From positions 62,001 through 126,000 of the forward strand of contig JAALKI010000002.1 in NCBI GenBank assembly GCA_011088105.1: a DNA stretch of 64,000 nt, read 5' to 3'. Positions 4,651 through 24,156 of the stretch are shown here, piece after piece. Each line of letters opens with the position of its first letter. Position 1 is the stretch's first letter. The translations under genes were made by a program, and so were the position numbers. Source of the stretch: Nitrospirota bacterium (GTDB taxonomy: Bacteria > Nitrospirota > Nitrospiria > Nitrospirales > UBA8639). Below the pieces are notes generated by a model. It ran no database searches. It had not been told where the DNA came from and saw nothing but the letters and a program-made list of their open reading frames with translations.

Positions 4651-7005
<2,355 letters not shown>

Positions 7006-7006
<1 letters not shown>

Positions 7007-7458
7007 TGGCTCAAACGACCGCAACATCGGCTTCGAACAAGATCCAGCTCGAAGTCGTGAGTCCTGATCACCTTCTCTTGAGTCAAGAAGTCGACTACGT
7101 GTCGGCGCCTGGGGTTGAAGGTGACTTTGGTGTTTTACCAGGCCATTGTCACTTTCTCACCACCCTCCGTATTGGAGAATTATCCTACCGTATTGGTGAA
7201 GAAACCCAATATATGTCCATTCTATGGGGATTTGCTGAAGTCAATCCACAGAAAGTGACAATCCTGGCTGAGGTTGCTGAAAAGGCAGAAGATATTGATA
7301 TCGAACGCGCGCAAACGGCTGTGACCAAAGCAGAAGAGCATCTGGAACGAGGGGGATTACCCTCAGAAGTCGAAGAAGCTCGCATCAGCTTGGAAAAAGC
7401 GAGACTCCGCCAGAAAATAGCCGAACGGCACCAACAAGCACGGAACCCTCACGCTTAG
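7006..7458 (+). CDS. atpC: ATP synthase F1 subunit epsilon
   Basis: This 150-residue protein has the epsilon N-terminal beta-sandwich (LEVVSPDHLLLSQEVDYVSAPGVEGDFGVLPGH) split into recognisable motifs, followed by the two-helix C-terminal domain that can inhibit ATP hydrolysis. TGATG links the atpD stop and the atpC start, indicating translational coupling. It is the last gene of the operon; the next gene, tyrS, converges on it. Confidence 0.94.
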
Positions 7459-7462
7459 ACGG

Positions 7463-7478
7463 TCACGATGCTTCGTGA
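7463..7478 (+). terminator. Short hairpin after atpC
   Basis: TCACGA at 7463-7468 and TCGTGA at 7473-7478 form a six-base stem with a four-base loop five bases after the atpC stop. There is no T-run, so termination is only a guess. The rest of the 248-base gap to the tyrS stop holds no gene that I can see. Confidence 0.3.
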
Positions 7479-7706
7479 TCAAGCATGAGAATGTTGAAAC
7501 GCCCACGAGCCTTCAGAAAAACTTCGATCCACATGCCAGCGGCATTTCCTCCAGACATGAGATAGTCATGCATGAAAGGGAATGAGAAAACTAAAGTCCT
7601 TTGCGCGCCTAACTCAAAATACAGCAAACAGCCTTTTTGCCTAGTCTTGGTTTTTGCTAGCGCTTGAAGCTGCCCATCAGGGACGACTTGCTAACAACTG
7701 TTGACA

Positions 7707-8951
7707 TTATTCAATAGCCCCTTCTGGATTCGCCAACTCAACGGTCGCATATTTTCGTTTCCCAACTTTCAAACGATATTGCCGGCCGGACTCGACATGC
7801 AAGAGTGTATTCACGTCTTGTTGCCGTTCTTTGTCAATCTCAATAGCACCCTGAACGATAAGCCGACGGGCCTCGGCTTTACTGGAGACCAATCCTGTTC
7901 GGGCAATCACCTCAATCAGACTCATCGAAAGATCGTCCGGGGAAGAAAAGTCTGAGAGATATAACACCAAACAGCTGTCTGGATGCTCGGGAAACTCTCG
8001 ACCACGAATCCGCTGTTGGAAATCAGCCTTGCCTTGCTGCGCAGCATCCGCGCCATGATACTGTTCGACGATTTGGGTCGCCAGCGCCATTTTGGCTTCC
8101 ATAGGGTGCAGCTGTGCCACCATCTCTAAATCCGTGGATGTCAAAAGTTCGTAATACCGCACCATAAGCTCATCGCTAATAGACATGAGTTTCCCAAACA
8201 TGTCTTCCGGCGTATCCTCTAGCGCAATGACATTGCCAAAACTCTTACTCATCTTCCTCACACCGTCCGTACCCTCTAAAAGCGGCATAGTGATCACGAC
8301 TTGAGGCACTTGCCCAAAAGCCCGTTGGAGGTCACGTCCAACCAACAAATTGAATTTTTGGTCAGTGCCCCCCAGTTCCACATCTGCCTCCAAGGCAACG
8401 GAGTCGTAACCCTGGACGAGAGGATAGAGAAATTCATGCACGCTGATGGGTTTTTGATCGCGGTATCGCTTAGAAAAATCATCTCGTTCCAACATGCGAG
8501 CGACACTATAATGCGAGCAGAGTTGCACCATCTCTTCTGCTCGCATGGCTTCCATCCACCGGCTGTTAAATTCGATCCGTGTTTTGAGGGGATCAAGGGT
8601 CTTGAAAATTTGACGCTCGTAGGTTTTAGCGTTCGCTTGGACTTGTGCCTTGGTCAGGGCCACTCGTGTTTCTGAAACTCCAGTTGGATCCCCAATCATT
8701 CCTGTAAAGTCACCAATGAGGAAAATGACTTCATGGCCGAGATCTTGGAAGTGCTTGAGTTTTTGGATCAGAACCGTATGGCCAAGATGCAAATCAGGGG
8801 CGGTAGGATCAAACCCGGCCTTAATGCGTAGGGGTCGCCCTTCCTGTAAAGCCGTACGAATCCGCGTTTCCAATTCTTGCTGCTGGATGACTTCGGTCGT
8901 CCCACGAAGAATGAGCGTGAGATGTTGAGTCAGATCTGACTGGGTTATCAT
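7707..8951 (-). CDS. tyrS: Tyrosyl-tRNA synthetase
   Basis: This class I synthetase has 414 residues. The HIGH motif appears as HLGH (residues 55-58) and the KMSKS loop as [10 protein letters not shown]. The C-terminal S4-like RNA-binding domain is visible ([18 protein letters not shown]). It charges tRNA-Tyr. The ATG start is at 8951, and the ComEA-like gene precedes it by 23 bases on the same strand. Confidence 0.96.
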
Positions 8952-8974
8952 GCGTTATACCTTCTTTACCATTA

Positions 8975-9322
8975 CTAAATCGTGATGAGTGATCGAAGGC
9001 GTGCCATCCGCACCTTGCCAATTCCATGAATGTTCTGAAGATCGTCGATTGAGGAAAAGGCACCATGGTGTTTTCGATAATCGAGAATGCGCTGAGCTAA
9101 GACAGTCCCAATACCTGGCAAGGTTTCTAATTCTTGGAGAGTGCCGACATTGATATTGATGATGCCGTTTTTCGTATGCGGGTTGGGGGCGCCAACCAAT
9201 GCGGGGTGGAGAGGCTGGAAGGACTCGCCCCTTGATGGATCCAACGCCCATGGGCCCATCCACCAGACCCCAACCAGCATCAGCCCCAACATCATCAGTT
9301 TGATACTCAAAGACCAAACCAT
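8975..9322 (-). CDS. ComEA-like helix-hairpin-helix protein
   Basis: This 115-residue protein has an N-terminal transmembrane helix or signal anchor (residues 4-27) and a C-terminal pair of helix-hairpin-helix motifs: LQELETLPGIGTVLAQRIL and DDLQNIHGIGKVRMARL. This is the ComEA layout, in which a membrane-anchored domain binds incoming DNA in the periplasm. Competence genes are not otherwise visible here, so the function is inferred from fold only. A longer upstream reading in another frame shows no family features. Confidence 0.82.
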   Translation of the reverse strand: MVWSLSIKLMMLGLMLVGVWWMGPWALDPSRGESFQPLHPALVGAPNPHTKNGIININVGTLQELETLPGIGTVLAQRILDYRKHHGAFSSIDDLQNIHGIGKVRMARLRSLITI

Positions 9323-9366
9323 ACCATCCTCGTCGTCGACGGGTTAAGCGAAAGGTCATCCACGGT

Positions 9367-10770
9367 TTACTTCCGTGTTGATGCCTGATGAATAGCAAGA
9401 TGTTCAATGTCTTCAGCTGCTTCCATCATGCCTTCAGACAATGTGGGGTGGGCATGAATCATCTGCGCTAAGGCCTTGGCCGGAGCATTGACCTGCATGG
9501 CCAGGGCAGCTTCATGAATCAAATCTGCGGCATGCGCGCCCATGATATGAGCGCCCAATATGGCATCGGTCTGTGAATCCGTAATGATTTTAAAGAACCC
9601 TGCTGTTTCACTCGTCCCTTGGGCTTTTCCCAAACCGGCATAACGAAATCGTCCGACAGAATAAGCAGCTCCACGCGCCTGTGCTTGCTGTTCTGTTATC
9701 CCGACTCGACCAATTTCTGGCAAGGTAAAGATACCGGCAGGAATCACATCATAATTGATGGACTGCGGAGCCTCCAAGATGTTTTCAACCGCCACCTTTC
9801 CTTGGGCCGAAGCCACATGGGCTAACATGGCCTTTCCCACTACATCGCCAATTGCGTAAATCCCAGGAATATTTGTTTCCAGCCGCTCATTGACCTCGAT
9901 ATGGCCACGTGTGCCCAACTCCACACCAACTTTTTCCAACCCGATCCCTTGTGTACGAAACCGTCGACCAATAGAGACGAGTATTTGATCGGTCTCAAGC
10001 GTGCCCCCATTGCTTAATACGGCGGTGATTGATTCGGGCGAACGATCAAGGCGCTCGACGGTCACCCCAGTGTGCACACGGACTTTTTGCTTTTTCAATG
10101 TCCGTTCCATGGCCTTTGAAATTTCCTCATCTTCTAAAGGAAGTACCGAATCCATCATTTCCACAAGCATCACGTGGGCCCCTAATGCACTCATTAGGGA
10201 TGCAAACTCACACCCTTCCACTCCTCCGCCTACAATGAGCAACCGAGCCGGAACTCCCTTCAAATCCAAGAGTTCCTTACTGGTCAGAATAGCGTGTCCA
10301 TCAACTGGAAATAAGGGAAGGTCTGGCCAAGAAGACCCCGTCGCCACAATAATGGCATCAGCCGGCACCTGTGTTTCAGTTCCATCCGGCTTGATCACTC
10401 GGACAGCACGTTCATGAAGCAACTCCCCAGTTCCTTGAATATGAGTCACCTGCCACGCCTTTAAAAGCGTGGCAATGCCGTTCACCAAACGATTGACAAT
10501 GCCATTTTTCCGGGCAACCATCTGCGCGAGGTCATAGCGAAAGGCACCATCAAGGTGAATGCCCCATTCTTTTGCCTGATGCAACTTTTCTCCCAAATCC
10601 ACCACCGCCAGCAAGGCTTTACTGGGAATACAGCCCCAATTCAAGCACACGCCCCCCAGGGCTTGGTTTTCAATGAGTGTCACCTGAGCCCCCAGTTGTG
10701 CAGCACGAATGGCTGCGACATAGCCTCCAGGGCCTGCACCAAGAATAACAAGGCGTGTTTGGGAAGACAT
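9367..10770 (-). CDS. lpdA: Dihydrolipoyl dehydrogenase
   Basis: This FAD enzyme of 467 residues starts with the GAGPGGYVAA dinucleotide motif, has the redox disulfide Cys42/Cys47 in CLNWGC, a second NAD-binding GGGVEGCEFA motif and the C-terminal HAHPTLSEGMMEA interface with the catalytic histidine-glutamate pair. It reoxidises dihydrolipoyl groups of 2-oxoacid dehydrogenases or the glycine cleavage H protein. Its start overlaps the stop of gcvH by one base, so in this genome it is probably tied to the H protein. Confidence 0.95.
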   Translation of the reverse strand: MSSQTRLVILGAGPGGYVAAIRAAQLGAQVTLIENQALGGVCLNWGCIPSKALLAVVDLGEKLHQAKEWGIHLDGAFRYDLAQMVARKNGIVNRLVNGIATLLKAWQVTHIQGTGELLHERAVRVIKPDGTETQVPADAIIVATGSSWPDLPLFPVDGHAILTSKELLDLKGVPARLLIVGGGVEGCEFASLMSALGAHVMLVEMMDSVLPLEDEEISKAMERTLKKQKVRVHTGVTVERLDRSPESITAVLSNGGTLETDQILVSIGRRFRTQGIGLEKVGVELGTRGHIEVNERLETNIPGIYAIGDVVGKAMLAHVASAQGKVAVENILEAPQSINYDVIPAGIFTLPEIGRVGITEQQAQARGAAYSVGRFRYAGLGKAQGTSETAGFFKIITDSQTDAILGAHIMGAHAADLIHEAALAMQVNAPAKALAQMIHAHPTLSEGMMEAAEDIEHLAIHQASTRK

Positions 10771-11153
10771 TAGGTTTCTGCGTTGAGAAATTCTTGGTAC
10801 TGCGCTGCATCCATTAACGCTTCAACTTCGGCAGGATTGGAGAGTTCAATGACGGCAATCCAGCCTTGTCCATACGGATCTTTGTTGAGGTGTTCTGGAT
10901 GATCCTCAAGATCTGCATTCACCTTGAGCACGGTGCCACTGACAGGAGCATAGATACTGGATGTCGCTTTTGTTGATTCCACCTCCCCAAGTTCCTGATT
11001 CGCAGAGACCTGACTCTCAACCTTGGGTAAATCCACAAAGACCACATCACCAAGTGCTTCTTGAGCAAAATGGCTAATCCCAACCGTAGCCTGCTGCCCA
11101 TCGATCCGAACCCATTCATGTTCTTTGTGATACCGCAAATCATCAGGAATCAT
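10770..11153 (-). CDS. gcvH: Glycine cleavage system H protein
   Basis: This 127-residue lipoyl carrier has the lipoylation lysine (Lys62) in the segment VESTKATSSIYAP. The H protein shuttles the aminomethyl group between the P, T and L proteins of glycine cleavage; in some bacteria it also acts in lipoate relay. Neither gcvP nor gcvT is in the window. A strong ribosome site, AAGGAGG, lies just before the ATG at 11153, and lpdA follows with a one-base overlap. Confidence 0.94.
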   Translation of the reverse strand: MIPDDLRYHKEHEWVRIDGQQATVGISHFAQEALGDVVFVDLPKVESQVSANQELGEVESTKATSSIYAPVSGTVLKVNADLEDHPEHLNKDPYGQGWIAVIELSNPAEVEALMDAAQYQEFLNAET

Positions 11154-11283
11154 GATACCTCCTTACATTATCGACAGATCTCATACGGGGATGACTCTAG
11201 GAAACAATGACGCTGTGTGTTTGAACCTAAAAACATTGGGTAGGAAATATTTCTCCATTTCATAAAGTAGCATATGGATTTTG

Positions 11284-12726
11284 TCAAGGAAATTGAGGAT
11301 ATGCCGTAATCTGCCCAACACCATGAGGCCATGGCCATTTTGGGCTGTGCCCTCCCAGCATGGTGTGGCGTGCTGAACGAAACACGGTCTGACGAGGCAC
11401 GAGAACCCACAGTTCTTGTGGATCGCCAAGCAATCCGATCATCTGATCAAGAACAGGGCGTAGGGAGGCAGCATCATTATTAGAAAGCGCAGAATGGTGA
11501 AAACCCTGAAGGTTCTTGGGAACATTAGGGGCTTGCTGTTGAATGAGAACAAAATCAAACTGGCTTTTTCCAATTTCAGCCCAATCTTCAGCATACGCCA
11601 CTAACGCCGGAAGAGGATGCTGAAGGCTTAATGCATGAATCTCTACGCCAAATTCCAACGATGGAAACCGGTCGGATAGTTGCTCGGAGAGTTTGGTCAT
11701 CACACGAACCTGTTCCCTCATCTTCCACCCACTCCATTGCCAGAAGAGCGGGGAAAAGACCTCATGATCAGAAACAAACGTCAGGGGATCGCTGTAAAGG
11801 AAACCAGCTTTAGAGGAATGGGGAAAAGTCAAGAACTCCTGAGGTTCTAGATGAACGTCAAAGGCGGTGTCAAACGCACGAATAGCTAAAGGCGTCAATC
11901 CGTCAAAAGGACCGAGGGGCGCATCAGCGCGAAACACGAACCCATCGATCCCTGTTTGGGCCAATGCACCCAACAATGCCACGAGGTGTTGTTGATACCC
12001 AGCGTGGAAAAGGTCAAAAAATTGAGAGGGTCGCATCTGTGTTGAGACAGGATCATAGCTCCGATCTCGCCAGTCATCACCCATGTGAGGCATCCCAATA
12101 CAGCGAAGGCTGACAGCGGCCATCACCGTCTGCTGATGCTGATGGGCCTGTGCAATCAATCGATTGCCTCCCACGCGCATGAAGTCCTTCCAGCGGTAGG
12201 GCGTACATCCCATCTCCAAGATATAAGTGGTGATTTGGGCACCTGCTGCTTCTTCAAGCAGTCGTGTCACAACACCCGTCTCCTGCAGGGTGGAGGCGGA
12301 CACGAAAAGGCCTCGAACCGGGCGAGGTTGGGGAGGCAGAGCAACAAACATCTTCTCTAACTCAAGAACATGAAGCTTGGCACGATCCCGATCGGTGTGT
12401 TCTTGGACAGTGGTGGCAACGATCCGATAGTAATCAAGAGCCTTTCGATAATCTCCGGCCTGTTGAGAGGACTGCGCTAACTCCCAGTGGACTTCATCGA
12501 GCAGCAACGATCGAGGATGGTTGACCACAAAGCGTTCCAAAAGACGCACACTTTCTTGAACCTGGCCTTGAGAACGCAGATGACGAGCTTCTTGGACGAG
12601 TTGCTGCTCTACCCTGCTGGTGAGATGAGGAAAGGTTGACGACGGAGTTGGCCTTTGGACACATCCTGCCCACAGAGCAAGGCACACCAGCCATACAGCC
12701 AATATGTGAACTATTCGGACATTCAC
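11284..12726 (-). CDS. Lipoprotein with TPR-like region and PgaB-type GHL glycoside-hydrolase domain
   Basis: This 480-residue protein begins with a lipoprotein signal (hydrophobic stretch ending LWAGC, Cys22 as lipidation site). Residues about 40-135 form helical TPR-like repeats (GQVQESVRLLERFV, GDYRKALDYYRIV). From about residue 140 to the end it resembles the GHL13-type glycosidase domain of poly-N-acetylglucosamine modifying PgaB (RGLFVSASTLQETG, TGIDGFVFRADAPLGPFDG). The PgaB deacetylase domain is absent. It may act on an exopolysaccharide at the envelope. Its start is GTG at 12726, and a stop of the integrase remnant lies just upstream. Confidence 0.7.
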   Translation of the reverse strand: MNVRIVHILAVWLVCLALWAGCVQRPTPSSTFPHLTSRVEQQLVQEARHLRSQGQVQESVRLLERFVVNHPRSLLLDEVHWELAQSSQQAGDYRKALDYYRIVATTVQEHTDRDRAKLHVLELEKMFVALPPQPRPVRGLFVSASTLQETGVVTRLLEEAAGAQITTYILEMGCTPYRWKDFMRVGGNRLIAQAHQHQQTVMAAVSLRCIGMPHMGDDWRDRSYDPVSTQMRPSQFFDLFHAGYQQHLVALLGALAQTGIDGFVFRADAPLGPFDGLTPLAIRAFDTAFDVHLEPQEFLTFPHSSKAGFLYSDPLTFVSDHEVFSPLFWQWSGWKMREQVRVMTKLSEQLSDRFPSLEFGVEIHALSLQHPLPALVAYAEDWAEIGKSQFDFVLIQQQAPNVPKNLQGFHHSALSNNDAASLRPVLDQMIGLLGDPQELWVLVPRQTVFRSARHTMLGGHSPKWPWPHGVGQITAYPQFP

Positions 12727-12934: not shown

Positions 12935-13510
12935 CGTGTGTGGCCGATGACGTGTTCTCTCCTTTTTGAATGTTGAATTGCATGATGGTGTAATAGAGCG
13001 ATACGGCATGAGATACCTGTCTTTGTTGTTTTTCGGTTTGACGTTTTTCTCGTGACTTTGTGATGAGGTGGAGAAGTCTTTCTTTCTCACAATCTGTGAT
13101 AATACTTGAGGCAGAACTTCAGATAATATCTTAGCAGTTTTCTGTTATCAGAATAGTCAATCTTCTATATCCAGACCTTGACCAGAATGGCATGAAATGG
13201 CTCTTCAATGTTTGGTGTGACCACCATACTGGAATTTATCTAGGCTTCCGTATATCATTTTATTTAGTACTATCCAGGAACTTGATACTAACGTGTTGGC
13301 GTTCTGTTGTGCAAAGTGCTGTTGCCCACAGACCAAGGATTTGCTAGCTGGCTTCTGCTCTAATTCTAGCTAATAAGCAGATCAACCAGACTCTGACGGG
13401 GATAAACAAGTCTATCCCTGCCTGAGTTGGTTATCCAAGGGCGTTACATTGCTGCTTGCTGCAAGCAAGTTTTCCTAAACACAGCGACTCACGATCCACT
13501 GGAGGTGCTT
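12935..13510. other. Intergenic stretch without a recognisable gene
   Basis: This stretch separates the integrase remnant from the metallo-beta-lactamase-fold gene. It is AT-rich and holds only short unconvincing reading frames on both strands. It ends with a ribosome site, GGAGGT at 13501-13506. I see no clear attC-like site, tRNA or terminator in it. Confidence 0.5.
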
Positions 13511-15460
13511 ATGCCAAAAGGAATAATCCGCGCGTATTTCCAAGAGCTAGAAAAATTCGGCTTTCGCGATAACGGTACCGAAAACCGAAACAGAAGGGCA
13601 CAGTTTCGTTCTGAGTTCCGAACGCATTTCCTGAAGTCTCGCGATACGGATGGCGCTATTCATCGGGAGCTTGCCTGGGGCGACCTTGTCGATTTACCGA
13701 GTGGGCTTTCGAATACTGAGGTGACTGAGGCCATTGTGAATGGTCTGACTGGGTTCATTCAATCAGATCATGTCGTTGAGGTTGCGTACATCAAGCGACG
13801 CGGAACAACAGAAAACAAACTCAAAGCAAAGCTTAGCTTCAAGAGTGGTGGCAAAACCCAAAATCGCGAACTTATCTGGGGAGACTGTGTTCAGATCCTT
13901 AAGAGGGGTGACACAACGTCAAAGGTGAGAGCTCGTGGCTTCATTGGAGAGATGAAGAATTCCGATCTCTCTGAAGAATCACTCTTAGAAGTGTATTTCA
14001 TCGACGTTGGTCAAGGGGATGGAGTACTTGTCCGGACACCGGACGGGCGGCATCTGCTGGTTGACGGGGGACTGGAACGTTCAAAGCAATTGACTGGGAA
14101 AAATGCTGCTGACTTTGTCGACTGGAAGTTTTTCTACGATTATGGTGACTACCAGATTCGTCTAGATAGCATGACCGCTTCACACTCTGACAACGACCAC
14201 TATGGTGGTCTACACGATCTGGTTAGAACGACTCCCGCCGCTGACCGCGAGCTCGACTGCCTGGGAACAGATATCGGCACGCTCCATCACCCAGGTCTTT
14301 CTCGATGGGAAAAGCGCTTAAATACCGATCCGCCTCATGTCGATGGCTTAGGTCCGGCAAAGGAGGGGTTCTTTGTGCGATTGCTTGGGGATCGTGCGGA
14401 TGCGGAAGGGGCGATTAAGAACGGAGTGGAGAATGAGCTTTCAGGTCCATGGAAATGGTTCTTTCGAGATGTGCTCAATAGTAGCGGAGCGACGACAATC
14501 GAACGAATCGGCATCGGACGTGAACATCTTGATCTAGGCGGACCGCTCCCGGAGCTATGGCCCGAGGCGGATGGGTGTTCAATTCGTATTCTCGGGCCTG
14601 TTACCATCGAGAGAGATGGGATGCCTACACTTCCAGATCTTGGGCAGAGATCCATTAACACAAACGGACATTCTGTTTGCTTCCGAATCGACTACAAAAA
14701 TGCGAGGATTATGCTAACCGGTGACCTCAATAAAGCTAGCATGGACTGGCTGCGGAAATGTTATGGTGACCGTCTCAGTGCCTTTGCATGCGACGTTGCC
14801 AAGGCTTGCCATCATGGGAGTCACGACATCTCATATCAATTCCTCGAGGCCATGCGACCCGCGGCGACAGTCATCTCCTCTGGTGATGCAGAAGGACATG
14901 CTCATCCAAGACCAGAAATTGTCGGGGCTAGCTCCGTCTCAGGCTTCCATAGTATCGACCGTAAGAAGGATAAGCTTGTAACCCCGCTCATTTATATGAC
15001 TGAAGTCGAGCGGAGTGTCTCGCTTGGAGCCGTCAATCGAATTGACTTCAAAGATCTCCCAGTAGGTGAGACAACGGTGGCTGGTATTCTGCCGGGACGA
15101 CATTTGGACGAACTGACCTCAAAGAAGCGTATCTCACCGACTGAGGAATCAGAGATCGCTGATGCACCGGCGGATGAACAGGCAGAAATTCGCAAGCAGC
15201 TCAAACGACGCTTGAAGGGGCTGGAAGGCCAAGCGACGGACGGTACGATCAAAGCCTCTTATTACTATTCCATGCCAAAAGGCCCGCTTTCTCCGGAACA
15301 CAAAGAGAGGAACGTTTGGCGATCACGCATCATGGTGAAAAACCACTATGGCCTAGTCAACGTGAGAACAGATGGTGAGCTTATCATGTGCGCGACACTT
15401 GATGAGACTGCTGAGGATTGGATTATCCATACGTTTCCTGCGCGGTTCTCCGAAAGCTGA
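13511..15460 (+). CDS. ComEC/Rec2-type metallo-beta-lactamase-fold hydrolase
   Basis: This 649-residue protein starts at the ATG at 13511, chosen for its GGAGGT site at 13501-13506; a TTG at 13427 would add 28 poor residues. The first 160 residues hold two similar segments (RELAWGDLVDL, RELIWGDCVQI), suggesting a duplicated small domain. From about residue 170 comes the ComEC-type fold: YFIDVGQGDGVLV, the metal motif SHSDNDHYGG, the MLTGDLN strand and CHHGSHD. No signal peptide or membrane segment is visible, unlike true ComEC, so it is probably a soluble nuclease or phosphodiesterase. The next gene encodes an EndoU-like RNase, and the pair may be a conflict or RNA-processing module. Confidence 0.75.
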   Translation: MPKGIIRAYFQELEKFGFRDNGTENRNRRAQFRSEFRTHFLKSRDTDGAIHRELAWGDLVDLPSGLSNTEVTEAIVNGLTGFIQSDHVVEVAYIKRRGTTENKLKAKLSFKSGGKTQNRELIWGDCVQILKRGDTTSKVRARGFIGEMKNSDLSEESLLEVYFIDVGQGDGVLVRTPDGRHLLVDGGLERSKQLTGKNAADFVDWKFFYDYGDYQIRLDSMTASHSDNDHYGGLHDLVRTTPAADRELDCLGTDIGTLHHPGLSRWEKRLNTDPPHVDGLGPAKEGFFVRLLGDRADAEGAIKNGVENELSGPWKWFFRDVLNSSGATTIERIGIGREHLDLGGPLPELWPEADGCSIRILGPVTIERDGMPTLPDLGQRSINTNGHSVCFRIDYKNARIMLTGDLNKASMDWLRKCYGDRLSAFACDVAKACHHGSHDISYQFLEAMRPAATVISSGDAEGHAHPRPEIVGASSVSGFHSIDRKKDKLVTPLIYMTEVERSVSLGAVNRIDFKDLPVGETTVAGILPGRHLDELTSKKRISPTEESEIADAPADEQAEIRKQLKRRLKGLEGQATDGTIKASYYYSMPKGPLSPEHKERNVWRSRIMVKNHYGLVNVRTDGELIMCATLDETAEDWIIHTFPARFSES

Positions 15461-15615: not shown

Positions 15616-16902
15616 ATGACAAACATCTTTCAGCAAATTTGGGATGCCGATCAGTCTGGCGGAGGCATTCGGCCCATACTCGATACTGAGATTGGCGACT
15701 CGCAAGTTGGCTTCGTCAAGGTGAATAGTAACCTTGGCACAGAGGAGAGAGACCTCCGCGTCCTCCCCGAAGTCGTTATTCCTAACTCAAAGCGCCGTAC
15801 GTACGACCTTTGCCGCCTGCTCTTTGACAATTATGCACTGCCGGAGTGGGATAAAGAGATCGATACACCCGAGGAGCGTGAAGAAGTCCACGATCTCGTC
15901 CATGCCATGGTTGATGCAGCACCGATGCAGGTCGCGCGGGAATATATCGCACAGGCGACCGGGACCGGTCTTACTCGGGAGCGATGGTACAACACCATCA
16001 TGGATATGTGGTTCCGTCGGTTTTCAATGGGAGGTGACCCACATCTGTCTGGCTTTGAACATATGATTGTCGGTGAGCAGGAACGCGCGAAAGCCCAGGG
16101 GTATCACTTCTGGTATAAATATCACCTCGATGACGGATTCGCTCAGCAAGTCGATGGTGCTATGGTGAATTTCCCAGGCCTGACTGACGATCGCATTGTG
16201 TACCTGGGTTCGAAGCAGTCGGCAGAGCAAGCCCAGTTCCCCGAGTCGGTGACCATTTCCTATCGCTGGAATGCTCCAGACTATGATCGAAAAAAACTGC
16301 GCTCACTCACCAAGAAGATTGGCGGATTTTTCGTAGGCTGCAGTGTCGAGGGCTTGCTTGCTCTGGGCTCAGTACGTGCGCATCTCGAGACACGAGCACC
16401 GAAGGAAGCCGTGATCAATGGTGCTCGATACAAACTTAAGGTTTTCCGCAGCGAAAACAATCGCCATGTTCGCACCTTCTACCCTGTCTTCGTGGGTGCA
16501 GTAAACGACGGGGTGGGCAGCCGCCCTGGCGATGGAAGAGAGGAAACTGAAGGAGGAGTCGTCACACCAGTGATCGCAGGTTGTATACGCATCGTCGCTG
16601 CGTTGATCAATCCCACAGGCCATGACGTTGGGAATGAAACAGTAACCCTGATCAATACAGGTGGAGCCCAAGAGACCTTGAATGGCTGGCGGCTTGAGGA
16701 TAAAAACAAGAGATCACAGCCCCTTTCGGACGTGACCATTGGAGCGGGAGAAACCGTTCGCATTGTGCTTAACCCATCCGGTGCACAGCTTTCCAATAAA
16801 GGAGGGCGTATTAATCTCATTAACGCAAGCGGGCATGTCGTGCATATGGTCAGTTATTCCAAGGGACAGGTCAAAACGGATGGAGAGACAATTCTGTTCT
16901 GA
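15616..16902 (+). CDS. EndoU (XendoU)-family endoribonuclease with C-terminal lamin-tail domain
   Basis: In this 428-residue protein, residues about 100-300 match the XendoU pattern: the histidine motif SGFEHMIVGE, then GYHFWYKYHLDDG, PESVTISYRWN, IGGFFVGCSVE and a closing GARYKLKVF...RTFYPVF. XendoU enzymes cut RNA at uridines using two histidines and a lysine; both histidine positions look present. From about residue 325 an Ig-like lamin-tail domain follows (ETVTLINTGGAQETLNGWRLEDK, split motif). There is no signal peptide. A GAGGTGAGG ribosome site precedes the ATG. Bacterial EndoU domains are known as toxins, and lamin-tail domains often accompany nucleases and ComEC-like hydrolases, as here. 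Confidence 0.72.
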   Translation: MTNIFQQIWDADQSGGGIRPILDTEIGDSQVGFVKVNSNLGTEERDLRVLPEVVIPNSKRRTYDLCRLLFDNYALPEWDKEIDTPEEREEVHDLVHAMVDAAPMQVAREYIAQATGTGLTRERWYNTIMDMWFRRFSMGGDPHLSGFEHMIVGEQERAKAQGYHFWYKYHLDDGFAQQVDGAMVNFPGLTDDRIVYLGSKQSAEQAQFPESVTISYRWNAPDYDRKKLRSLTKKIGGFFVGCSVEGLLALGSVRAHLETRAPKEAVINGARYKLKVFRSENNRHVRTFYPVFVGAVNDGVGSRPGDGREETEGGVVTPVIAGCIRIVAALINPTGHDVGNETVTLINTGGAQETLNGWRLEDKNKRSQPLSDVTIGAGETVRIVLNPSGAQLSNKGGRINLINASGHVVHMVSYSKGQVKTDGETILF

Positions 16903-19220: not shown

Positions 19221-20636
19221 TTACTGAATGAAATGGATGTTTTTCTGCTTGATTAAGCGAGCCAGGTAGCTACGCTGTAGCCCGAGTTCATCTGCGGCTT
19301 TGGTTTGATTTCCATGACATCGCTGAAGGGTTTGTTCAATGATGTGGCAGCTGTACCATTCCAGCGCATCATGATACGACAGCCCAGCTGGGTCAGGAGC
19401 CTTGTAATCAGGCAACATCGTCAGGCCCAATTGATCCGTTCCGATCATTGGTCCGATACCTAGAACGACAGCCCGAGAGATGGCATTGTCCAACTCTCGA
19501 ATGTTGCCGGGCCAGGCATACGTATTCATATACGATTTCGCCTCCGGGGTCAGAGCCATCTTAGGCTTCCCCATTTCTCTGATGTGCCGTTGTAAAAACA
19601 TTTCGGCCAGCGATTGAATATCATCAGGCCTTTCTCGAAGGGGAGGGAGAGAAAACGTCACAACATTGAGACGAAAGTATAAATCCTCCCGAAACCGACC
19701 GGTCTTGACTGCCTGACGGAGATCACGGTTCGTGGCCGCAATCACTCGAATGTTCACATGAACCTGCCGAGTCCCCCCAACACGGTGAAATTCACGATCC
19801 TGCAAGAAGCGAAGGAGTTTTACCTGCAAATCTTGGTGCATATCTCCAATTTCATCTAGAAAAAGCGTCCCACCATCGGCAATTTCGATTTTGCCTTTTT
19901 GAATAGAGCTCGCACCGGTATACGCTCCCTTTTCATGACCGAACAACTCATTTTCCAATAAAGTATCATTTAAAGCGACACAGTTGATAATGACAAAGGG
20001 ATGCTTTCGTCTAGGACTCCATTGATGAATAGAGCGGGCAAATAATTCCTTACCCGTTCCACTTTCTCCGAGAAGCAAGACCGTCGCATCAGAATTTGCT
20101 GCCCGTTTCGCCATGGTTGTCAGGGCTGTAATCTTGGGATTCCTTCCAACAATGACTGAATAGCGAGATTCGACTTCTGTACGCAAGTATTCTACATGCT
20201 GCTTGAGCGACTCTCGTTCCATGGCCTTTCCCATGGCGAGGGCCAGGTGATCGATATTCAGTGGTTTGAGTAAAAAGTCATAGGCTCCACATTTCATGGC
20301 TTCCACCGCGCGGGTAACAGTGGCGTGGGCCGTCATGACAACAATCGGAGGGATGAGCCCTGGAGCCGAGACACGAGGCCCACTATTTGTTTCTGTTTGC
20401 AGAGTAGCGTCATTGAGCTGTTGTCGTTGGCTGAGATGCTCCAAGACGTCCATGCCCGACATCTTCGGCATTTCCAAATCCAAGAGCACCAATGCAATCT
20501 CTTCATGCTGCAATAACTCAAGCGCCTCTGTCCCATCACCAGCTCTGACCGTATCGTACCCCAACGCTGCAATCCGATCAGATAACATCAAGGCAATGTC
20601 AGGATCATCATCTACAATCAAGACTTTTTGTGTCAT
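19221..20636 (-). CDS. Sigma54-dependent response regulator (NtrC family)
   Basis: This protein is 471 residues long from the ATG at 20636 (MTQKVLIVDDD); an earlier in-frame start would overlap the upstream gene and add unrelated residues. Domains: a receiver with the phosphoacceptor aspartate in LLDLEMP, an AAA+ domain with Walker A GESGTGKE and the sigma54 loop as GAYTGA instead of the common GAFTGA, and a Fis-type helix-turn-helix (NQTKAADELGLQRSYL). It activates transcription from -24/-12 promoters. No histidine kinase is nearby; the genes upstream encode a deoxyhypusine-synthase-like protein and a sugar-phosphate isomerase. Confidence 0.9.
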   Translation of the reverse strand: MTQKVLIVDDDPDIALMLSDRIAALGYDTVRAGDGTEALELLQHEEIALVLLDLEMPKMSGMDVLEHLSQRQQLNDATLQTETNSGPRVSAPGLIPPIVVMTAHATVTRAVEAMKCGAYDFLLKPLNIDHLALAMGKAMERESLKQHVEYLRTEVESRYSVIVGRNPKITALTTMAKRAANSDATVLLLGESGTGKELFARSIHQWSPRRKHPFVIINCVALNDTLLENELFGHEKGAYTGASSIQKGKIEIADGGTLFLDEIGDMHQDLQVKLLRFLQDREFHRVGGTRQVHVNIRVIAATNRDLRQAVKTGRFREDLYFRLNVVTFSLPPLRERPDDIQSLAEMFLQRHIREMGKPKMALTPEAKSYMNTYAWPGNIRELDNAISRAVVLGIGPMIGTDQLGLTMLPDYKAPDPAGLSYHDALEWYSCHIIEQTLQRCHGNQTKAADELGLQRSYLARLIKQKNIHFIQ

Positions 20637-20655
20637 AGCCTTTTGCCTTATGGTC

Positions 20656-21627
20656 TCATGAATCCAATTCTTCAAGAATCGCCGCGGCCAGCAAAGGAAG
20701 CATAATTTCATGATGGCCAGTGAGTGCGTATCCAACGCCCCCTTTTTGGGTCGGTCGTTTCAGGACATTGGTCGTAGGACGATACTGATTGAGAAAGTCT
20801 AAATTGGCTGTCGTAATGTGTCGAAGCGATCGACCAAGATTGCGGCTGAGCGTCACGGTTTTCAAAAACACTTCAGGCAGAAGGACGGCCGATCCCACAT
20901 TCACGTAGACCCCCCCTTCCATTCGAGAGACCACAGCGGTCAATTTGTGGAAATCGTATAAAGATGCCGCTCCAAGCGCAGCTCCATCTGCCAAAGGATG
21001 CATATGAATAATGTCTGTCCCAATCGCGACATGCACAGTCGCCGGCACATTAAGTGTCGCAGCCTTAGCGAGCAAGCTGGTCTTGATCGAACGAAAAGCC
21101 TTGGCATGCCGATTCATGTACCGTCCCACCGCTTCTCCTATTCCCTGGCCTTCTTTGTCTCCTTGAATAATCGCCTCGTTAATCATACGTCCTGTCTCTT
21201 CAGCCATCCCAAACCGTCCATTATCAATCTCAGCATCCACATCTTCCGAGGTTTGCCCCAGGTACGCCAGCTCAAAGTCATGAATCACAACAGCCCCACT
21301 CATGGCAACGGCTGTAATAATGCCACGATCCATCAGATCAACCAAAATAGGATTGAGGCCCACCTTGGTTGGATGAGCCCCCAAGCCGAAGATCACCGGA
21401 CGCCGCCGTCGATGAGCATGCGCAATGGCTTTTGCCAAACGGCGAAGGGTCTTCACGGCAAGCACATCAGGGAGCGATGCAAGAAATCCTGCGAATGTTC
21501 CACCTGACTGCCAGGGAGAACCAAACTGGGATGTTCGAACTTTACTTCGACGTGTTCGAAGCGGGTAGGTCTTGACTCGTGAAAGATCTAAAGGTCCACG
21601 AGCTGGAGGTTTAGGGGATTTCGGCAA
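20656..21627 (-). CDS. Deoxyhypusine-synthase-like protein
   Basis: This 323-residue protein resembles the bacterial deoxyhypusine-synthase-like family: FGLGAHPTKVGLNPILVDLM, AMSGAVVIHDFELAYLG, TVHVAIGTDIIHMHP and the NVGSAVLLPEVFLK segment of the NAD-binding Rossmann core. True deoxyhypusine synthase modifies eIF5A, which bacteria lack, so the reaction here is unknown; some bacterial relatives make homospermidine-type products. Its start overlaps the SIS gene by 17 bases and the response-regulator start lies 19 bases after its stop, so the three form an operon. Confidence 0.7.
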   Translation of the reverse strand: MPKSPKPPARGPLDLSRVKTYPLRTRRSKVRTSQFGSPWQSGGTFAGFLASLPDVLAVKTLRRLAKAIAHAHRRRRPVIFGLGAHPTKVGLNPILVDLMDRGIITAVAMSGAVVIHDFELAYLGQTSEDVDAEIDNGRFGMAEETGRMINEAIIQGDKEGQGIGEAVGRYMNRHAKAFRSIKTSLLAKAATLNVPATVHVAIGTDIIHMHPLADGAALGAASLYDFHKLTAVVSRMEGGVYVNVGSAVLLPEVFLKTVTLSRNLGRSLRHITTANLDFLNQYRPTTNVLKRPTQKGGVGYALTGHHEIMLPLLAAAILEELDS

Positions 21628-22192
21628 AAAGTTCCTCTTCTACAAGTTCACACAGCACATGTCCTAACGTCATGTGACATTCTTGAATACGTGCCGTAAC
21701 CAATGACGGCACAAGAAACGCATGCTCGACATGTCGCGCGAGAGCTCCACCGGATTCACCGGTCCAGCCAATAGTGACTAACCCCTTCGATCGAGCAACA
21801 TCCACACCCCGTAGGACATTAGGGGAATTGCCACTCGTGCTGAGGGCAATGGCGATGTCACCCGTTTGCCCATGCGCCTGAATTTGGTGAGCGAAAATAT
21901 CCGCAAATTCATAATCGTTGGCAATACTCGTGAGCGTCGACAAATTCGTTGTCAACGCCAAAGCTGGCAATGGGGCACGCTTTTTCTGATATCGTCCAAC
22001 AAACTCAGCAGCTAGATGCGCGGCATCGGCGGCACTGCCCCCATTGCCAAAGAACAAAACTTTCTTCTCGTTTCGGAAAGCCGTGACGACGGCTTGGGCC
22101 AACACTTCAATCTGCAAAATGGAAGCCTGAACAAATCGCCGCTTGACATCGGCGCTCTCTTCAAACCGTTGAATGATGCCTTCTCGATTCAT
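21611..22192 (-). CDS. gmhA: SIS-domain phosphoheptose isomerase-type protein
   Basis: This 193-residue SIS protein has the motifs FGNGGSAADAAHLAAEFVGR, LSTSGNSPNVL and the metal-binding RIQECHMTLGHVLCE. These match GmhA, which converts sedoheptulose-7-phosphate to heptose-7-phosphates for LPS core, though the related DiaA cannot be excluded. It is the first gene of an operon with the deoxyhypusine-synthase-like protein and the sigma54 regulator. No other heptose genes are in the window. Confidence 0.82.
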   Translation of the reverse strand: MNREGIIQRFEESADVKRRFVQASILQIEVLAQAVVTAFRNEKKVLFFGNGGSAADAAHLAAEFVGRYQKKRAPLPALALTTNLSTLTSIANDYEFADIFAHQIQAHGQTGDIAIALSTSGNSPNVLRGVDVARSKGLVTIGWTGESGGALARHVEHAFLVPSLVTARIQECHMTLGHVLCELVEEELFAEIP

Positions 22193-22477
22193 CGAAAGAA
22201 CATTGTAACAAGGTGTGCCCCGTTTTCACACTCTTCGATTTTTGGATCTCGAAACACCCGTTGGATCACACACGTCCACCAACGCATGTCGCGTATCTGG
22301 CATAAGAAAAACATGTCTCATGCCCCATTAAAGTAACCACGAATAGTTTTCTTGCACGAAATATCCTAATGGCTTTCGCATTTTTTTCACTCAATGGCCA
22401 TTTCTGGTGTCGAGAATAGATGCAGAATCCATCATTTTCTTGAACCCCTCCCAAGGTGGTGATATAGTCTCTCCGAC

Positions 22478-23743
22478 GTGAGCATCGACGGTCCAATCAA
22501 AGCCCTCTTCGTGGCAATAGGGGAAGATCCTGCCACGGCCCTCTACACCATTAACCGTTTGGCACCAGAGTTTCTATGCCTCTGTCTTCCTGAGACAAGT
22601 CAGTCCCTTGTCGAAACACACGTGCAACCACATGTTGCCACCATGCCTCACCGATGGGATTGGATACTCTTGAAAGCACCTCATCAGTTTCAGCATGTCC
22701 ATCAAGAACTTGCGCAACATCTTCCCCCCATGTTGAAAACATGGGGGATTCATTCGGGAGACTTAGTCGTAGATCTTTCCGCATCGACACCAGCTATGGC
22801 TTCAGCCATGGTACTCGTCAGTCGTACGATGGCTTCACGCATCGTTCAGCTCACAGCACCCCATCCTGACATCTCCTCATCATCCAACATCATAGACATA
22901 GAAGGAACGGCCAAGGCTTGGCTATCCTCTAATATGTGGGATGAAGAGGCGGTCCAAGCTCGAGCTGAGGCATCTCGACTGTTTAATCAAGGGGCCTTTC
23001 ATTCCGCCGCACAGGGATATCGCCATATTGAATCCTTAGTCAGCGGAGGACTCAAACCGCTCTATCATGCACTGGGTGAATTATCGGAAGGCTATGCGCT
23101 CTGGGAACACTTCCAATACCGATTGGCATGGGACAAACTAAAATCCTCCCTGAAAGCCTTGGAACTAGCATCCATATGGGGAGGGCCTACAGGGCTCGCC
23201 AGCGTCTTGACAGCCGTCAAGGCCAATGTGAAATTCCTGGAAAGTCTTGTGATGGATCCAGACGTGATCAAGCGTGTGGTGTCACATGATCTATTTGCTC
23301 ATGCCCAACGCTTAGCTCGGCGCGATCAACATGTTGAAGCCGCAACCATGGTTCTCCTCCGAGCACTTGAAGCCTATGTTCAATATCAATTGTGGGTAAC
23401 ATTTCACATCAAGTCGTGGGATGTGCAGCTTGAGCAACTGCCTCAAGCCCTTCAAGAGACATGTCGACACTGTTATCTTGACGATATTGATGGAAAGTAT
23501 AAGCTCTCACTCCAGACTCAGTTTCATACCCTGGCCGGGCTTGGGCATCCAATGGGGCAGGCCTTCTTATCGGAATGGACCAAGCTAAAACCGCTTCTGG
23601 ATGCTTCACAACAAGCTATCTTGGGACATGGATTTGAACCAATCAAAAAGGAACGCTTTCATCAGCTTGTCGAAATTGTCACAAAACTCACGAACCTTCA
23701 CGACACATCTCTCCCAACCTTCCCTCACATGAACCTGTCCTGA
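22478..23743 (+). CDS. Orphan CARF/HEPN-like protein of the Cas02710 (TIGR02710) type, active site degenerate
   Basis: This 421-residue protein has a Rossmann-like start (IKALFVAIGEDPATALYTI) and the segment GDLVVDLSASTPAMASAMV, which aligns by eye with the ligand loop of Cas02710-type CARF proteins (usually GGTKAMS). A helical middle resembles the repeats of that family, and the C-terminus has QQAILGHGFEPI, matching the HEPN motif usually written RNxSILAHGF. Here the arginine and asparagine of that motif are replaced, so RNase activity is doubtful. No cas genes or CRISPR repeats lie nearby. Start is GTG at 22478 with a poor ribosome site. The family call is from memory of motifs. Confidence 0.5.
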   Translation: MSIDGPIKALFVAIGEDPATALYTINRLAPEFLCLCLPETSQSLVETHVQPHVATMPHRWDWILLKAPHQFQHVHQELAQHLPPMLKTWGIHSGDLVVDLSASTPAMASAMVLVSRTMASRIVQLTAPHPDISSSSNIIDIEGTAKAWLSSNMWDEEAVQARAEASRLFNQGAFHSAAQGYRHIESLVSGGLKPLYHALGELSEGYALWEHFQYRLAWDKLKSSLKALELASIWGGPTGLASVLTAVKANVKFLESLVMDPDVIKRVVSHDLFAHAQRLARRDQHVEAATMVLLRALEAYVQYQLWVTFHIKSWDVQLEQLPQALQETCRHCYLDDIDGKYKLSLQTQFHTLAGLGHPMGQAFLSEWTKLKPLLDASQQAILGHGFEPIKKERFHQLVEIVTKLTNLHDTSLPTFPHMNLS

Positions 23744-23745
23744 TC

Positions 23746-24156
23746 ATGGAGGTCAAAATCTACTATGAGGACACGGACTGTGGGGGAGTCGTCTATTATG
23801 CGAATTATTTAAAGTACTTTGAACGAGCCCGAACCGACTATTTGCAAGAACGAGGGCTGTCCGTTGCCAAACTTCAGGCGGAGGGCACATTGTTTGTGGT
23901 CATTCATGCTGAACTGACCTACCGTTCTCCTGCTCGATACGGTGATGTGCTCACAATTCAGACGACGGTTTCCCCAACACGCAAAACAGGCATCATATTT
24001 TCACACGTTATTTGCCATCGGGATGACCAGCGAGTGATCGTTGAAGGCTCAGCGACGTTGGTGACGACCAACCTTCAAAATAAGATCCAGAGATTAGATC
24101 CCAACCTCACTCAAGTCATCCTGGCCTCGGGACCACCTCTCACTTCATCGGCATAA
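23746..24156 (+). CDS. Acyl-CoA thioesterase, YbgC/4-hydroxybenzoyl-CoA thioesterase type
   Basis: This 136-residue hot-dog-fold protein has the family motif YYEDTDCGGVVYYANYLKYF, with the catalytic aspartate in EDTD. It hydrolyses acyl-CoA or acyl-ACP thioesters; relatives accompany the Tol-Pal system. Its ATG lies two bases after the stop of the CARF-like gene, suggesting co-transcription, but I see no functional link. Tol-Pal genes are not in the window. Confidence 0.86.
   Translation: MEVKIYYEDTDCGGVVYYANYLKYFERARTDYLQERGLSVAKLQAEGTLFVVIHAELTYRSPARYGDVLTIQTTVSPTRKTGIIFSHVICHRDDQRVIVEGSATLVTTNLQNKIQRLDPNLTQVILASGPPLTSSA

What the first reader, a model, noticed from the sequence alone, without database searches (positions are those of the whole stretch)
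22478..23743. Orphan CARF/HEPN-like protein with altered ligand and RNase motifs
The sequence follows the Cas02710 layout, but the ligand loop reads ASTPAMA where GGTKAMS is usual, and the HEPN motif reads SQQAILGHGF where RNxSILAHGF is usual. No cas gene or CRISPR is near. It may have lost cyclic-oligoadenylate sensing and RNA cutting and taken a new role, perhaps as an inactive regulator.
Basis: partly seen in the sequence, partly recalled or inferred. Interest (0 to 1): 0.5.

Follow-up and report, generated by a model that had tools for sequence, protein, structure and literature searches.

The report
Inactive CRISPR-effector relative kept as housekeeping
A protein that in other bacteria senses a virus alarm signal and cuts RNA has, throughout an order of Nitrospira-type bacteria, lost key residues for both tasks yet is kept by about nine in ten well-sequenced species, usually at the same chromosomal place, so it has probably taken on another job that is still unidentified.

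Summary
It is a CARF-6H-HEPN protein of the TIGR02710/Csm6 type. The change is ancestral, not private: the family profile matches 204 of 235 genomes of the order (141 of 153 good ones); in 114 distinct order proteins (from 111 of those 204 genomes plus named records) the HEPN arginine and the CARF lysine are never present, while 11 of 11 canonical relatives keep both. The nearest relatives, in another class of the phylum, are intact, and the order is one clade beside them, which fits a single loss. Median dN/dS is 0.11. The locus gmhA-CARF-ybgC is shared by 31 of 36 long order loci, and 76 of 76 upstream regions carry a promoter that implies a near-leaderless mRNA. The own genome shows no Cas10 or Cas1; 14 of 235 order genomes have Cas10 over the cut-off. 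Best reading: a type III effector domesticated into a non-catalytic, cOA-blind binding protein. Its target is unknown; RNA is my first guess. A profile for the clade exists (PADLOC PDLC01812): a new variant of a known kind.

The parts
22478..23743 (+). CARF-6H-HEPN gene (421 aa), TIGR02710/Csm6-type, degenerate in both functional sites
22440..22445 (+). -35-like element TTGAAC
   Evidence: a TTG-like hexamer at about this spacing in many order members
22460..22468 (+). extended -10 element TGATATAGT, ending 9 nt before the start codon (leaderless or near-leaderless transcript inferred)
   Evidence: 76 of 76 distinct upstream regions of order members carry such an element at 6-10 nt; 12 of 583 other ORFs in 26 loci do
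22478..22936 (+). CARF domain (residues 1-153 by model)
   Evidence: Pfam sub-threshold; CARF part of the model Z 14-15 to Can2/Card1, rmsd 2.1-2.5 over 120-126 residues
22781..22801 (+). CARF ligand loop ASTPAMA, canonical GGTKxMS lost (K105 replaced by P)
22655..22663 (+). order-specific near-invariant motif W60-D61-W62
22955..23239 (+). 6H linker domain
   Evidence: PF22205, residues 160-254
23285..23698 (+). HEPN domain
   Evidence: PF09670, residues 270-407; 6H+HEPN model Z 19.3, rmsd 3.5 over 248 residues to Csm6 8jh1
23606..23635 (+). degenerate HEPN motif SQQAILGHGF (canonical RNxSxLAHG); the Arg position is Ser here, the His is kept
23746..24156 (+). ybgC-like 4HBT thioesterase, 2 nt downstream, likely co-transcribed
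21611..22192 (-). gmhA-like SIS-domain protein, divergent neighbour shared by most order loci
20656..21627 (-). neighbour without a Pfam match, shared by most order loci

Best explanation
An ancestral type III accessory protein (a cOA-sensing CARF-HEPN RNase of the TIGR02710/Csm6 type) was domesticated before the order diversified. SHOWN by sequence: in all order members examined the HEPN Arg and the CARF Lys are gone, together with most further pocket residues, while the fold, 81 near-invariant positions, mostly the locus, and the promoter are kept under purifying selection. INFERRED: the loss happened once; the protein no longer binds cyclic oligoadenylate or cuts RNA; it is made from a sigma-70-type extended -10 promoter as a leaderless or near-leaderless mRNA, in many genomes together with a thioesterase; it works as a dimer whose pseudo-HEPN cleft and 6H linker bind a partner, with RNA or an RNA-protein complex the first guess, and whose CARF part is a dimerisation platform or senses another ligand. 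How likely: non-catalytic and cOA-blind about 0.9; a housekeeping rather than CRISPR role about 0.8; binding RNA in particular about 0.35.
For: Arg position: 0 of 114 distinct order proteins keep R (A 110, V 2, S 1, T 1) against 11 of 11 canonical; CARF Lys: 0 of 114 against 11 of 11. 28 positions conserved in canonical relatives are lost; 81 are at least 96% invariant in the order, 51 of them shared with all intact f19 sisters. Order one clade, support 100; one change for R and one for H on the tree. dN/dS median 0.107, range 0.04-0.24, 271 non-independent pairs. Match in 204 of 235 order genomes, 34 of 37 genera; gmhA-CARF-ybgC in 31 of 36 order loci of 6 kb or more. Cas10 over cut-off in 14 of 235 order genomes, but in 4 of 10 genomes of the sister family f19, all 4 among the 5 f19 genomes that hold the gene. 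Canonical paralogues with both motifs lie in four order genomes that also match the clade profile strongly: G016, G017, G252, G292, so this copy does not replace them. Promoter 76 of 76. Fold.
Against: No activity, ligand or partner was measured. Not every catalytic residue is gone: His in 88, the Asn in 48 and the Ser of the motif in 20 of 114. The gene can be lost: in G007 and G002 gmhA is kept but CARF and ybgC are absent from the locus, and 12 of 153 good genomes have no match. The full-length model has pTM 0.55, and residues 328-341 have pLDDT under 50. The f19 genes seen also lie away from cas genes, so decoupling may predate the loss of the motifs. The tree is a quick one and the program warns that its two longest branches meet.
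Confidence: 0.72

Rival explanations
1. It is still an active defence nuclease: a shifted set of residues (kept His, in part Asn, plus other conserved basic residues such as R278, R295, K371, R393) cuts RNA, switched on by a different ligand.
For: H384 kept in 88 and N378 in 48 of 114; R278, R295, K371, R393 near-invariant in the order and shared with the intact f19 proteins.
Against: The Arg is gone in 114 of 114; in one clade of 9 rows within the window's family the His is gone too while the protein stays conserved. Presence in most genomes of the order, mostly at one locus, is unlike a defence gene.
Confidence: 0.1
2. It antagonises type III immunity, as a dead subunit that pairs with an active Csm6 or soaks up cOA.
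For: Canonical paralogues coexist in four order genomes.
Against: 221 of 235 order genomes have no Cas10 over the cut-off; residues of the canonical cOA pocket are lost.
Confidence: 0.07
3. It is a scaffold or regulator of the neighbouring envelope/lipid genes (ybgC thioesterase, gmhA).
For: CARF-ybgC adjacency, 2-24 nt apart in the loci of the window's family that have ybgC there and 23 nt in one f3 locus; 187 of 235 genomes have both and 29 have neither.
Against: Co-absence is confounded by adjacency and incomplete assemblies; 17 genomes show CARF without a ybgC match, among them the single-contig G014. In many f2 loci the gap is 55-1615 nt.
Confidence: 0.12
4. A decaying relic without function.
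For: Key residues of both known functional sites are gone.
Against: dN/dS about 0.11, match in 204 of 235 genomes, conserved promoter and order-specific invariant residues.
Confidence: 0.02

Closest known systems
Thermus thermophilus Csm6 (5fsh, 8jbb, 8jh1)
   Same: CARF-6H-HEPN layout; 6H+HEPN model Z 19.3, rmsd 3.5 over 248 residues; Foldseek full length E 1e-11; profile E 4.5e-6
   Different: It keeps SGTKAM and GRNSALLVHGF at the aligned places, where the window has ASTPAM and ASQQAILGHGF; by entry titles and molecule name it is a CRISPR endoribonuclease solved with cA4
PADLOC PDLC01812 (CARF1--CARF_HEPN)
   Same: Full-length match, 572 bits, 811 bits for a named Nitrospira: in effect this clade's own catalogued profile
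   Different: Named only as CARF_HEPN with an empty description; nothing says that the sites are degenerate
Intact TIGR02710-type sister proteins in f19 (L089, L090, L094, L095)
   Same: 33% identity to the window protein for three, 31% for L095; 51 near-invariant residues shared
   Different: They keep GGTK (CGTK in L095) and RNxSxLAHG; three lie before rho/prfA/murA and one beside other housekeeping genes (gene labels by eye), not at gmhA-ybgC
RtcR-type CARF regulators
   Same: A CARF domain outside CRISPR that mostly lacks the positively charged residue after strand 4, for which distinct ligands were suggested (PMC4012209, passages seen)
   Different: RtcR links CARF to an AAA+ sigma-54 activator part, not to HEPN (same passages)

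Membership tests
TIGR02710 (CRISPR-associated CARF protein, Csm6/Csx1 type) | Sequence profile above curated cut-off | tested here: met
   103.4 bits against 83.9; Pfam PF09670 and PF22205 above cut-off, CARF profile PF22208 below
TIGR02710 (CRISPR-associated CARF protein, Csm6/Csx1 type) | CARF + 6H + HEPN fold | tested here: met
   predicted models
TIGR02710 (CRISPR-associated CARF protein, Csm6/Csx1 type) | HEPN catalytic R...H motif | tested here: not met
   R in 0 of 114 order proteins, 11 of 11 canonical; H in 88 of 114, the window's among them
TIGR02710 (CRISPR-associated CARF protein, Csm6/Csx1 type) | CARF ligand loop with Lys (GGTK) | tested here: not met
   K in 0 of 114, 11 of 11 canonical
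TIGR02710 (CRISPR-associated CARF protein, Csm6/Csx1 type) | Type III CRISPR system in the genome (usual, not strict: each CARF family has unlinked genes, PMC4012209 passage) | tested here: not met
   no PF22335 Cas10 and no Cas1 match in G000, 97.6% complete; no other cas profile was run
TIGR02710 (CRISPR-associated CARF protein, Csm6/Csx1 type) | cOA-stimulated RNase activity | not testable with these tools
   needs purified protein
PADLOC PDLC01812 (CARF1--CARF_HEPN) | Full-length profile match | tested here: met
   E 1.6e-172, profile 3-418 of 418
RtcR-type CARF regulator | AAA+ sigma-54 domain in the same protein | tested here: not met
   Pfam finds HEPN, 6H and CARF and one weak unrelated match, no AAA+; a separate sigma-54 response regulator lies at 19221-20735

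The most novel reading that the evidence does not exclude
A CRISPR signalling effector was converted, in the common ancestor of an order of Nitrospira-type bacteria, into a leaderless, constitutively made housekeeping protein that uses the CARF-HEPN dimer to sense a new ligand and to bind RNA without cutting it.
Probability: 0.3. Interest if true: 0.8.

Novelty: new variant of a known kind. Interest (0 to 1): 0.58.

Why it matters
Effectors of type III CRISPR are generally seen as defence toxins (general knowledge). Here one seems to have become a near-core gene of a whole order after losing key residues of both its sensor pocket and its active site. That makes a natural experiment on how immune proteins are domesticated, and it points to an untested function in ecologically important bacteria. 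It also warns that automatic labels (TIGR02710, CARF_HEPN) would count a probably inactive, non-CRISPR protein as a defence gene in about two hundred genomes.

Tried and rejected
Pseudogene: rejected by dN/dS and breadth; exceptions with a broken frame exist (one TGA in G342; L009 is in pieces). Private change of this genome: rejected. Alignment error at the motifs: rejected by profile-profile alignment of order and canonical sets and by the alignment to Csm6. Spread by phage or plasmid: no phage match; 14 plasmid records match (Thermus 11, Synechocystis 2, Rubrobacter 1), all under 60% identity, the ten listed at 21-23% and annotated TIGR02710. ybgC dependence: a search for ybgC in 10 genomes without the gene was empty and had no control, so I ran the whole order; the resulting Fisher p of 6e-23 is confounded by adjacency and fragmented assemblies and is not used as proof. 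gmhA was then sought in 22 genomes (15 matched) and six flanks read: no CARF or ybgC match in any of the six, but only some reach far enough past gmhA to tell. phmmer of the window protein against PDB gave two weak matches, E 0.77 and 1.1; phmmer of an intact f19 protein gave none.

Limits of the counts. Motif count: dropped were L001 (window copy), L009 (broken or masked), L113 and L114 (short), and 28 identical proteins; the 114 come from 111 of the 204 matching genomes (my count over) plus named records L002-L008, chosen partly by best score and partly to cover genera. G082's two pieces were not motif-checked. A few of the 204 (for example G383 and G385, E about 1e-39) may be canonical paralogues or fragments; not resolved. 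State changes used 56 of 59 rows; three had no row in that alignment, and the f19 states were entered by hand. The first leaderless control (2 of 57) counted the gene itself; one search leaves it out (window 1 of 56, which is gmhA; 26 loci, 12 of 583). CRISPR repeats were looked for only in 12000-34000.

Papers: passages seen by term search, not whole texts, of PMC3710099 (12 of 22 places), PMC4012209 (5 of 5), PMC12669027 (12 of 21), PMC11229360 (8 of 8). All others were seen in listings only, among them PMC8649781, which holds CARF, HEPN and Nitrospira and was not opened. The 2020 CARF classification paper is not held. Searches without a description of this order-wide form, as far as listings and those passages show.

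Full report
OBSERVATION. ORF 22478-23743 (+) encodes 421 aa with a GTG start. It matches the Csm6 HEPN and 6H Pfam models above cut-off and the Csm6 CARF model below it, NCBIfam TIGR02710 above cut-off and PADLOC PDLC01812 over its full length at 572 bits.

FOLD. AlphaFold2 on the window protein plus seven named relatives gave mean pLDDT 76, pTM 0.55. Foldseek's best PDB matches are T. thermophilus Csm6 (E 1e-11). VIA-align gives Z 20 to Csm6 but with rmsd 13.7 over 374 residues, so the domains are placed differently; the CARF part alone fits Can2 and Card1 at Z 14-15, rmsd 2.1-2.5 over 120-126 residues. The 6H+HEPN part modelled alone (pLDDT 79.9, pTM 0.77) fits Csm6 at Z 19.3, rmsd 3.5 over 248 residues (Foldseek E 8.9e-5). 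So both folds are predicted with fair confidence.

DISTRIBUTION. The own genome holds one match. PDLC01812 matches 43 of 48 genomes of the window's family, 204 of 235 of the order (141 of 153 good genomes, 34 of 37 genera) and 110 of 295 sampled across the phylum, of which 95 belong to the order. In the third family of the order, f3, only 2 genomes matched and 6 of those listed did not. The eight named relatives are Nitrospira or Nitrospiraceae assemblies.

MOTIFS. 114 distinct order proteins were aligned with 11 distinct canonical ones. The HEPN Arg column is A 110, V 2, S 1 (this window), T 1, never R; canonical 11 of 11 R. The next column, Asn in 11 of 11 canonical, is N in 48 of 114 and otherwise D, H, S, Q, Y, G or A (Q in the window). 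The motif Ser, 11 of 11 canonical, is S in 20 of 114. The His is kept in 88 of 114 and is otherwise Y 17, Q 4, G 2, R 1, A 1, N 1. The CARF Lys column is P 84, A 16, V 7, S 5, T 2, never K; canonical 11 of 11 K. Over the whole protein, 28 positions conserved in canonical relatives are lost, among them the strand-1 motif (S13, G15, E19), Y124 and R130 of the CARF part and N275, D288, R292 of the HEPN part. At the same time 81 positions are at least 96% invariant in the order: 51 are shared with the four intact f19 rows and 30 are not, including W60-D61-W62, K312, W314, C329, Q348 and Q396. These are candidates for the new function.

HISTORY. A 59-row tree puts the order in one clade (SH-aLRT 100) with the intact f19 proteins as sister and the distant canonical paralogues outside (quick method, rooted by me on the paralogues; the program warns that the two longest branches meet). 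One change suffices for the Arg and one for the His. The His was lost in a clade of nine rows of the window's family. Three of four intact f19 genes sit before rho-prfA-murA, the fourth beside other housekeeping genes; I saw no cas gene in those stretches (L089, L090, L094, L095, labels by eye). Cas10 is over the cut-off in 4 of 10 f19 genomes (8 of 10 have some match at E 0.001), and these are 4 of the 5 with the CARF-HEPN gene; of the four whose motifs I saw intact, three (G089, G064, G073) have it and G101 has a match below the cut-off. In the order Cas10 is rarer: 14 of 235 over the cut-off. Canonical paralogues (L086, L087, L096, L097) lie in four order genomes that also match the clade profile strongly; G016, G017 and G252 have Cas10, and G292 is not among the matches. 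This fits loss of the signal source followed by loss of sensing and cutting, but the order of events is inferred.

SELECTION AND LOCUS. Median pairwise dN/dS is 0.107 over 271 non-independent pairs. Of 36 order loci of 6 kb or more, 27 show all of h20656 - gmhA (divergent) - CARF - ybgC, and 31 show gmhA - CARF - ybgC; L002, L070 and L076 lack ybgC and L077 and L101 lack gmhA within the stretch held. In the window's family, where ybgC is present, it lies 2-24 nt downstream; in f2 gaps run from 6 to 1615 nt. The gene is dispensable: in G007 gmhA and h20656 remain, but genes that look like restriction-modification genes stand where CARF and ybgC would be, and G002 also lacks both there (labels by eye). 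Across the order 187 genomes match both CARF and ybgC, 17 CARF only, 2 ybgC only, 29 neither.

PROMOTER. Every one of 76 distinct order upstream regions has an extended -10 element (TGN before TATAGT in 71, TATCAT 3, TATATT 1, TATGAT 1) that ends 6-10 nt before the start codon, 9 nt in 62. Of 583 other ORFs of 150 aa or more in 26 order loci, 12 show such a site 4-12 nt before any of their first six start codons. With the usual distance of about 6-8 nt from -10 to the transcription start (recalled), the mRNA would have a leader of a few nt at most. Four distant canonical genes whose upstream sequence I printed (L086, L087, L091, L092) have GGAGG-like ribosome-site sequence, in L086 well upstream of the start I chose; the two f19 genes printed (L089, L090) have neither that nor the TATAGT element in plain form and were not scored. 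No transcription start was measured.

FUNCTION. Shown: predicted fold, loss of key residues in both functional sites, constraint, locus, promoter sequence. Inferred: a single loss, no cOA sensing, no RNA cutting, constitutive expression, dimer, binding role. [quoted passage not shown] the order proteins lack the Arg but many keep the His, so the statement applies only in part. The 2014 CARF survey notes that RtcR-type CARF domains mostly lack the positive residue after strand 4 and may bind distinct ligands (PMC4012209, passage seen). On that ground I rate RNA binding by the pseudo-HEPN cleft as the first guess, at about 0.35.

NOVELTY. The clade already has a profile in PADLOC under the plain name CARF_HEPN, so the proteins were catalogued. 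I found no text that calls them inactive, order-wide or non-CRISPR, but that covers only the held library, and the 2020 CARF classification could not be read. I therefore file it as a new variant of a known kind: a member by descent and fold of the TIGR02710/Csm6 kind that fails two tested defining features, the HEPN Arg and the CARF Lys.

Noticed in passing
window 15616-16902 (+): Protein with an XendoU endoribonuclease domain (PF09412, E 2e-28) followed by a lamin-tail domain (PF00932), next to a metallo-beta-lactamase-fold protein at 13427-15460: an unusual bacterial EndoU.
   Followed up: no
window 22192 (start of gmhA, - strand): The divergent gmhA also has an extended -10-like TGTTACAAT 9 nt before its start codon, so the two genes may form a divergent leaderless pair.
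   Followed up: no
L175 (G007:C2:70001-84000) about 5038-11945: In G007 the CARF-ybgC pair is absent and genes that look like a type I restriction-modification system follow gmhA (label by eye).
   Followed up: partly
L089, L090, L094: Intact canonical CARF-HEPN genes in lineage f19 sit beside rho-prfA-murA-hisG-like genes and not beside cas genes (labels by eye): possibly a cOA effector acting in trans.
   Followed up: partly
L098 10758-11147 and 7938-9338: In this f2 locus a small protein gene lies between CARF and ybgC, and stomatin/NfeD-like genes lie between gmhA and CARF (labels by eye).
   Followed up: no
G037:C8:1398-2648 and G037:C220:817-2064: Two near-full-length copies in one assembly, perhaps mixed strains.
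   Followed up: no
window 20656-21627 (-): Conserved neighbour of gmhA without a Pfam match at E 0.001 although 58-74% identical across the order loci that have it.
   Followed up: no
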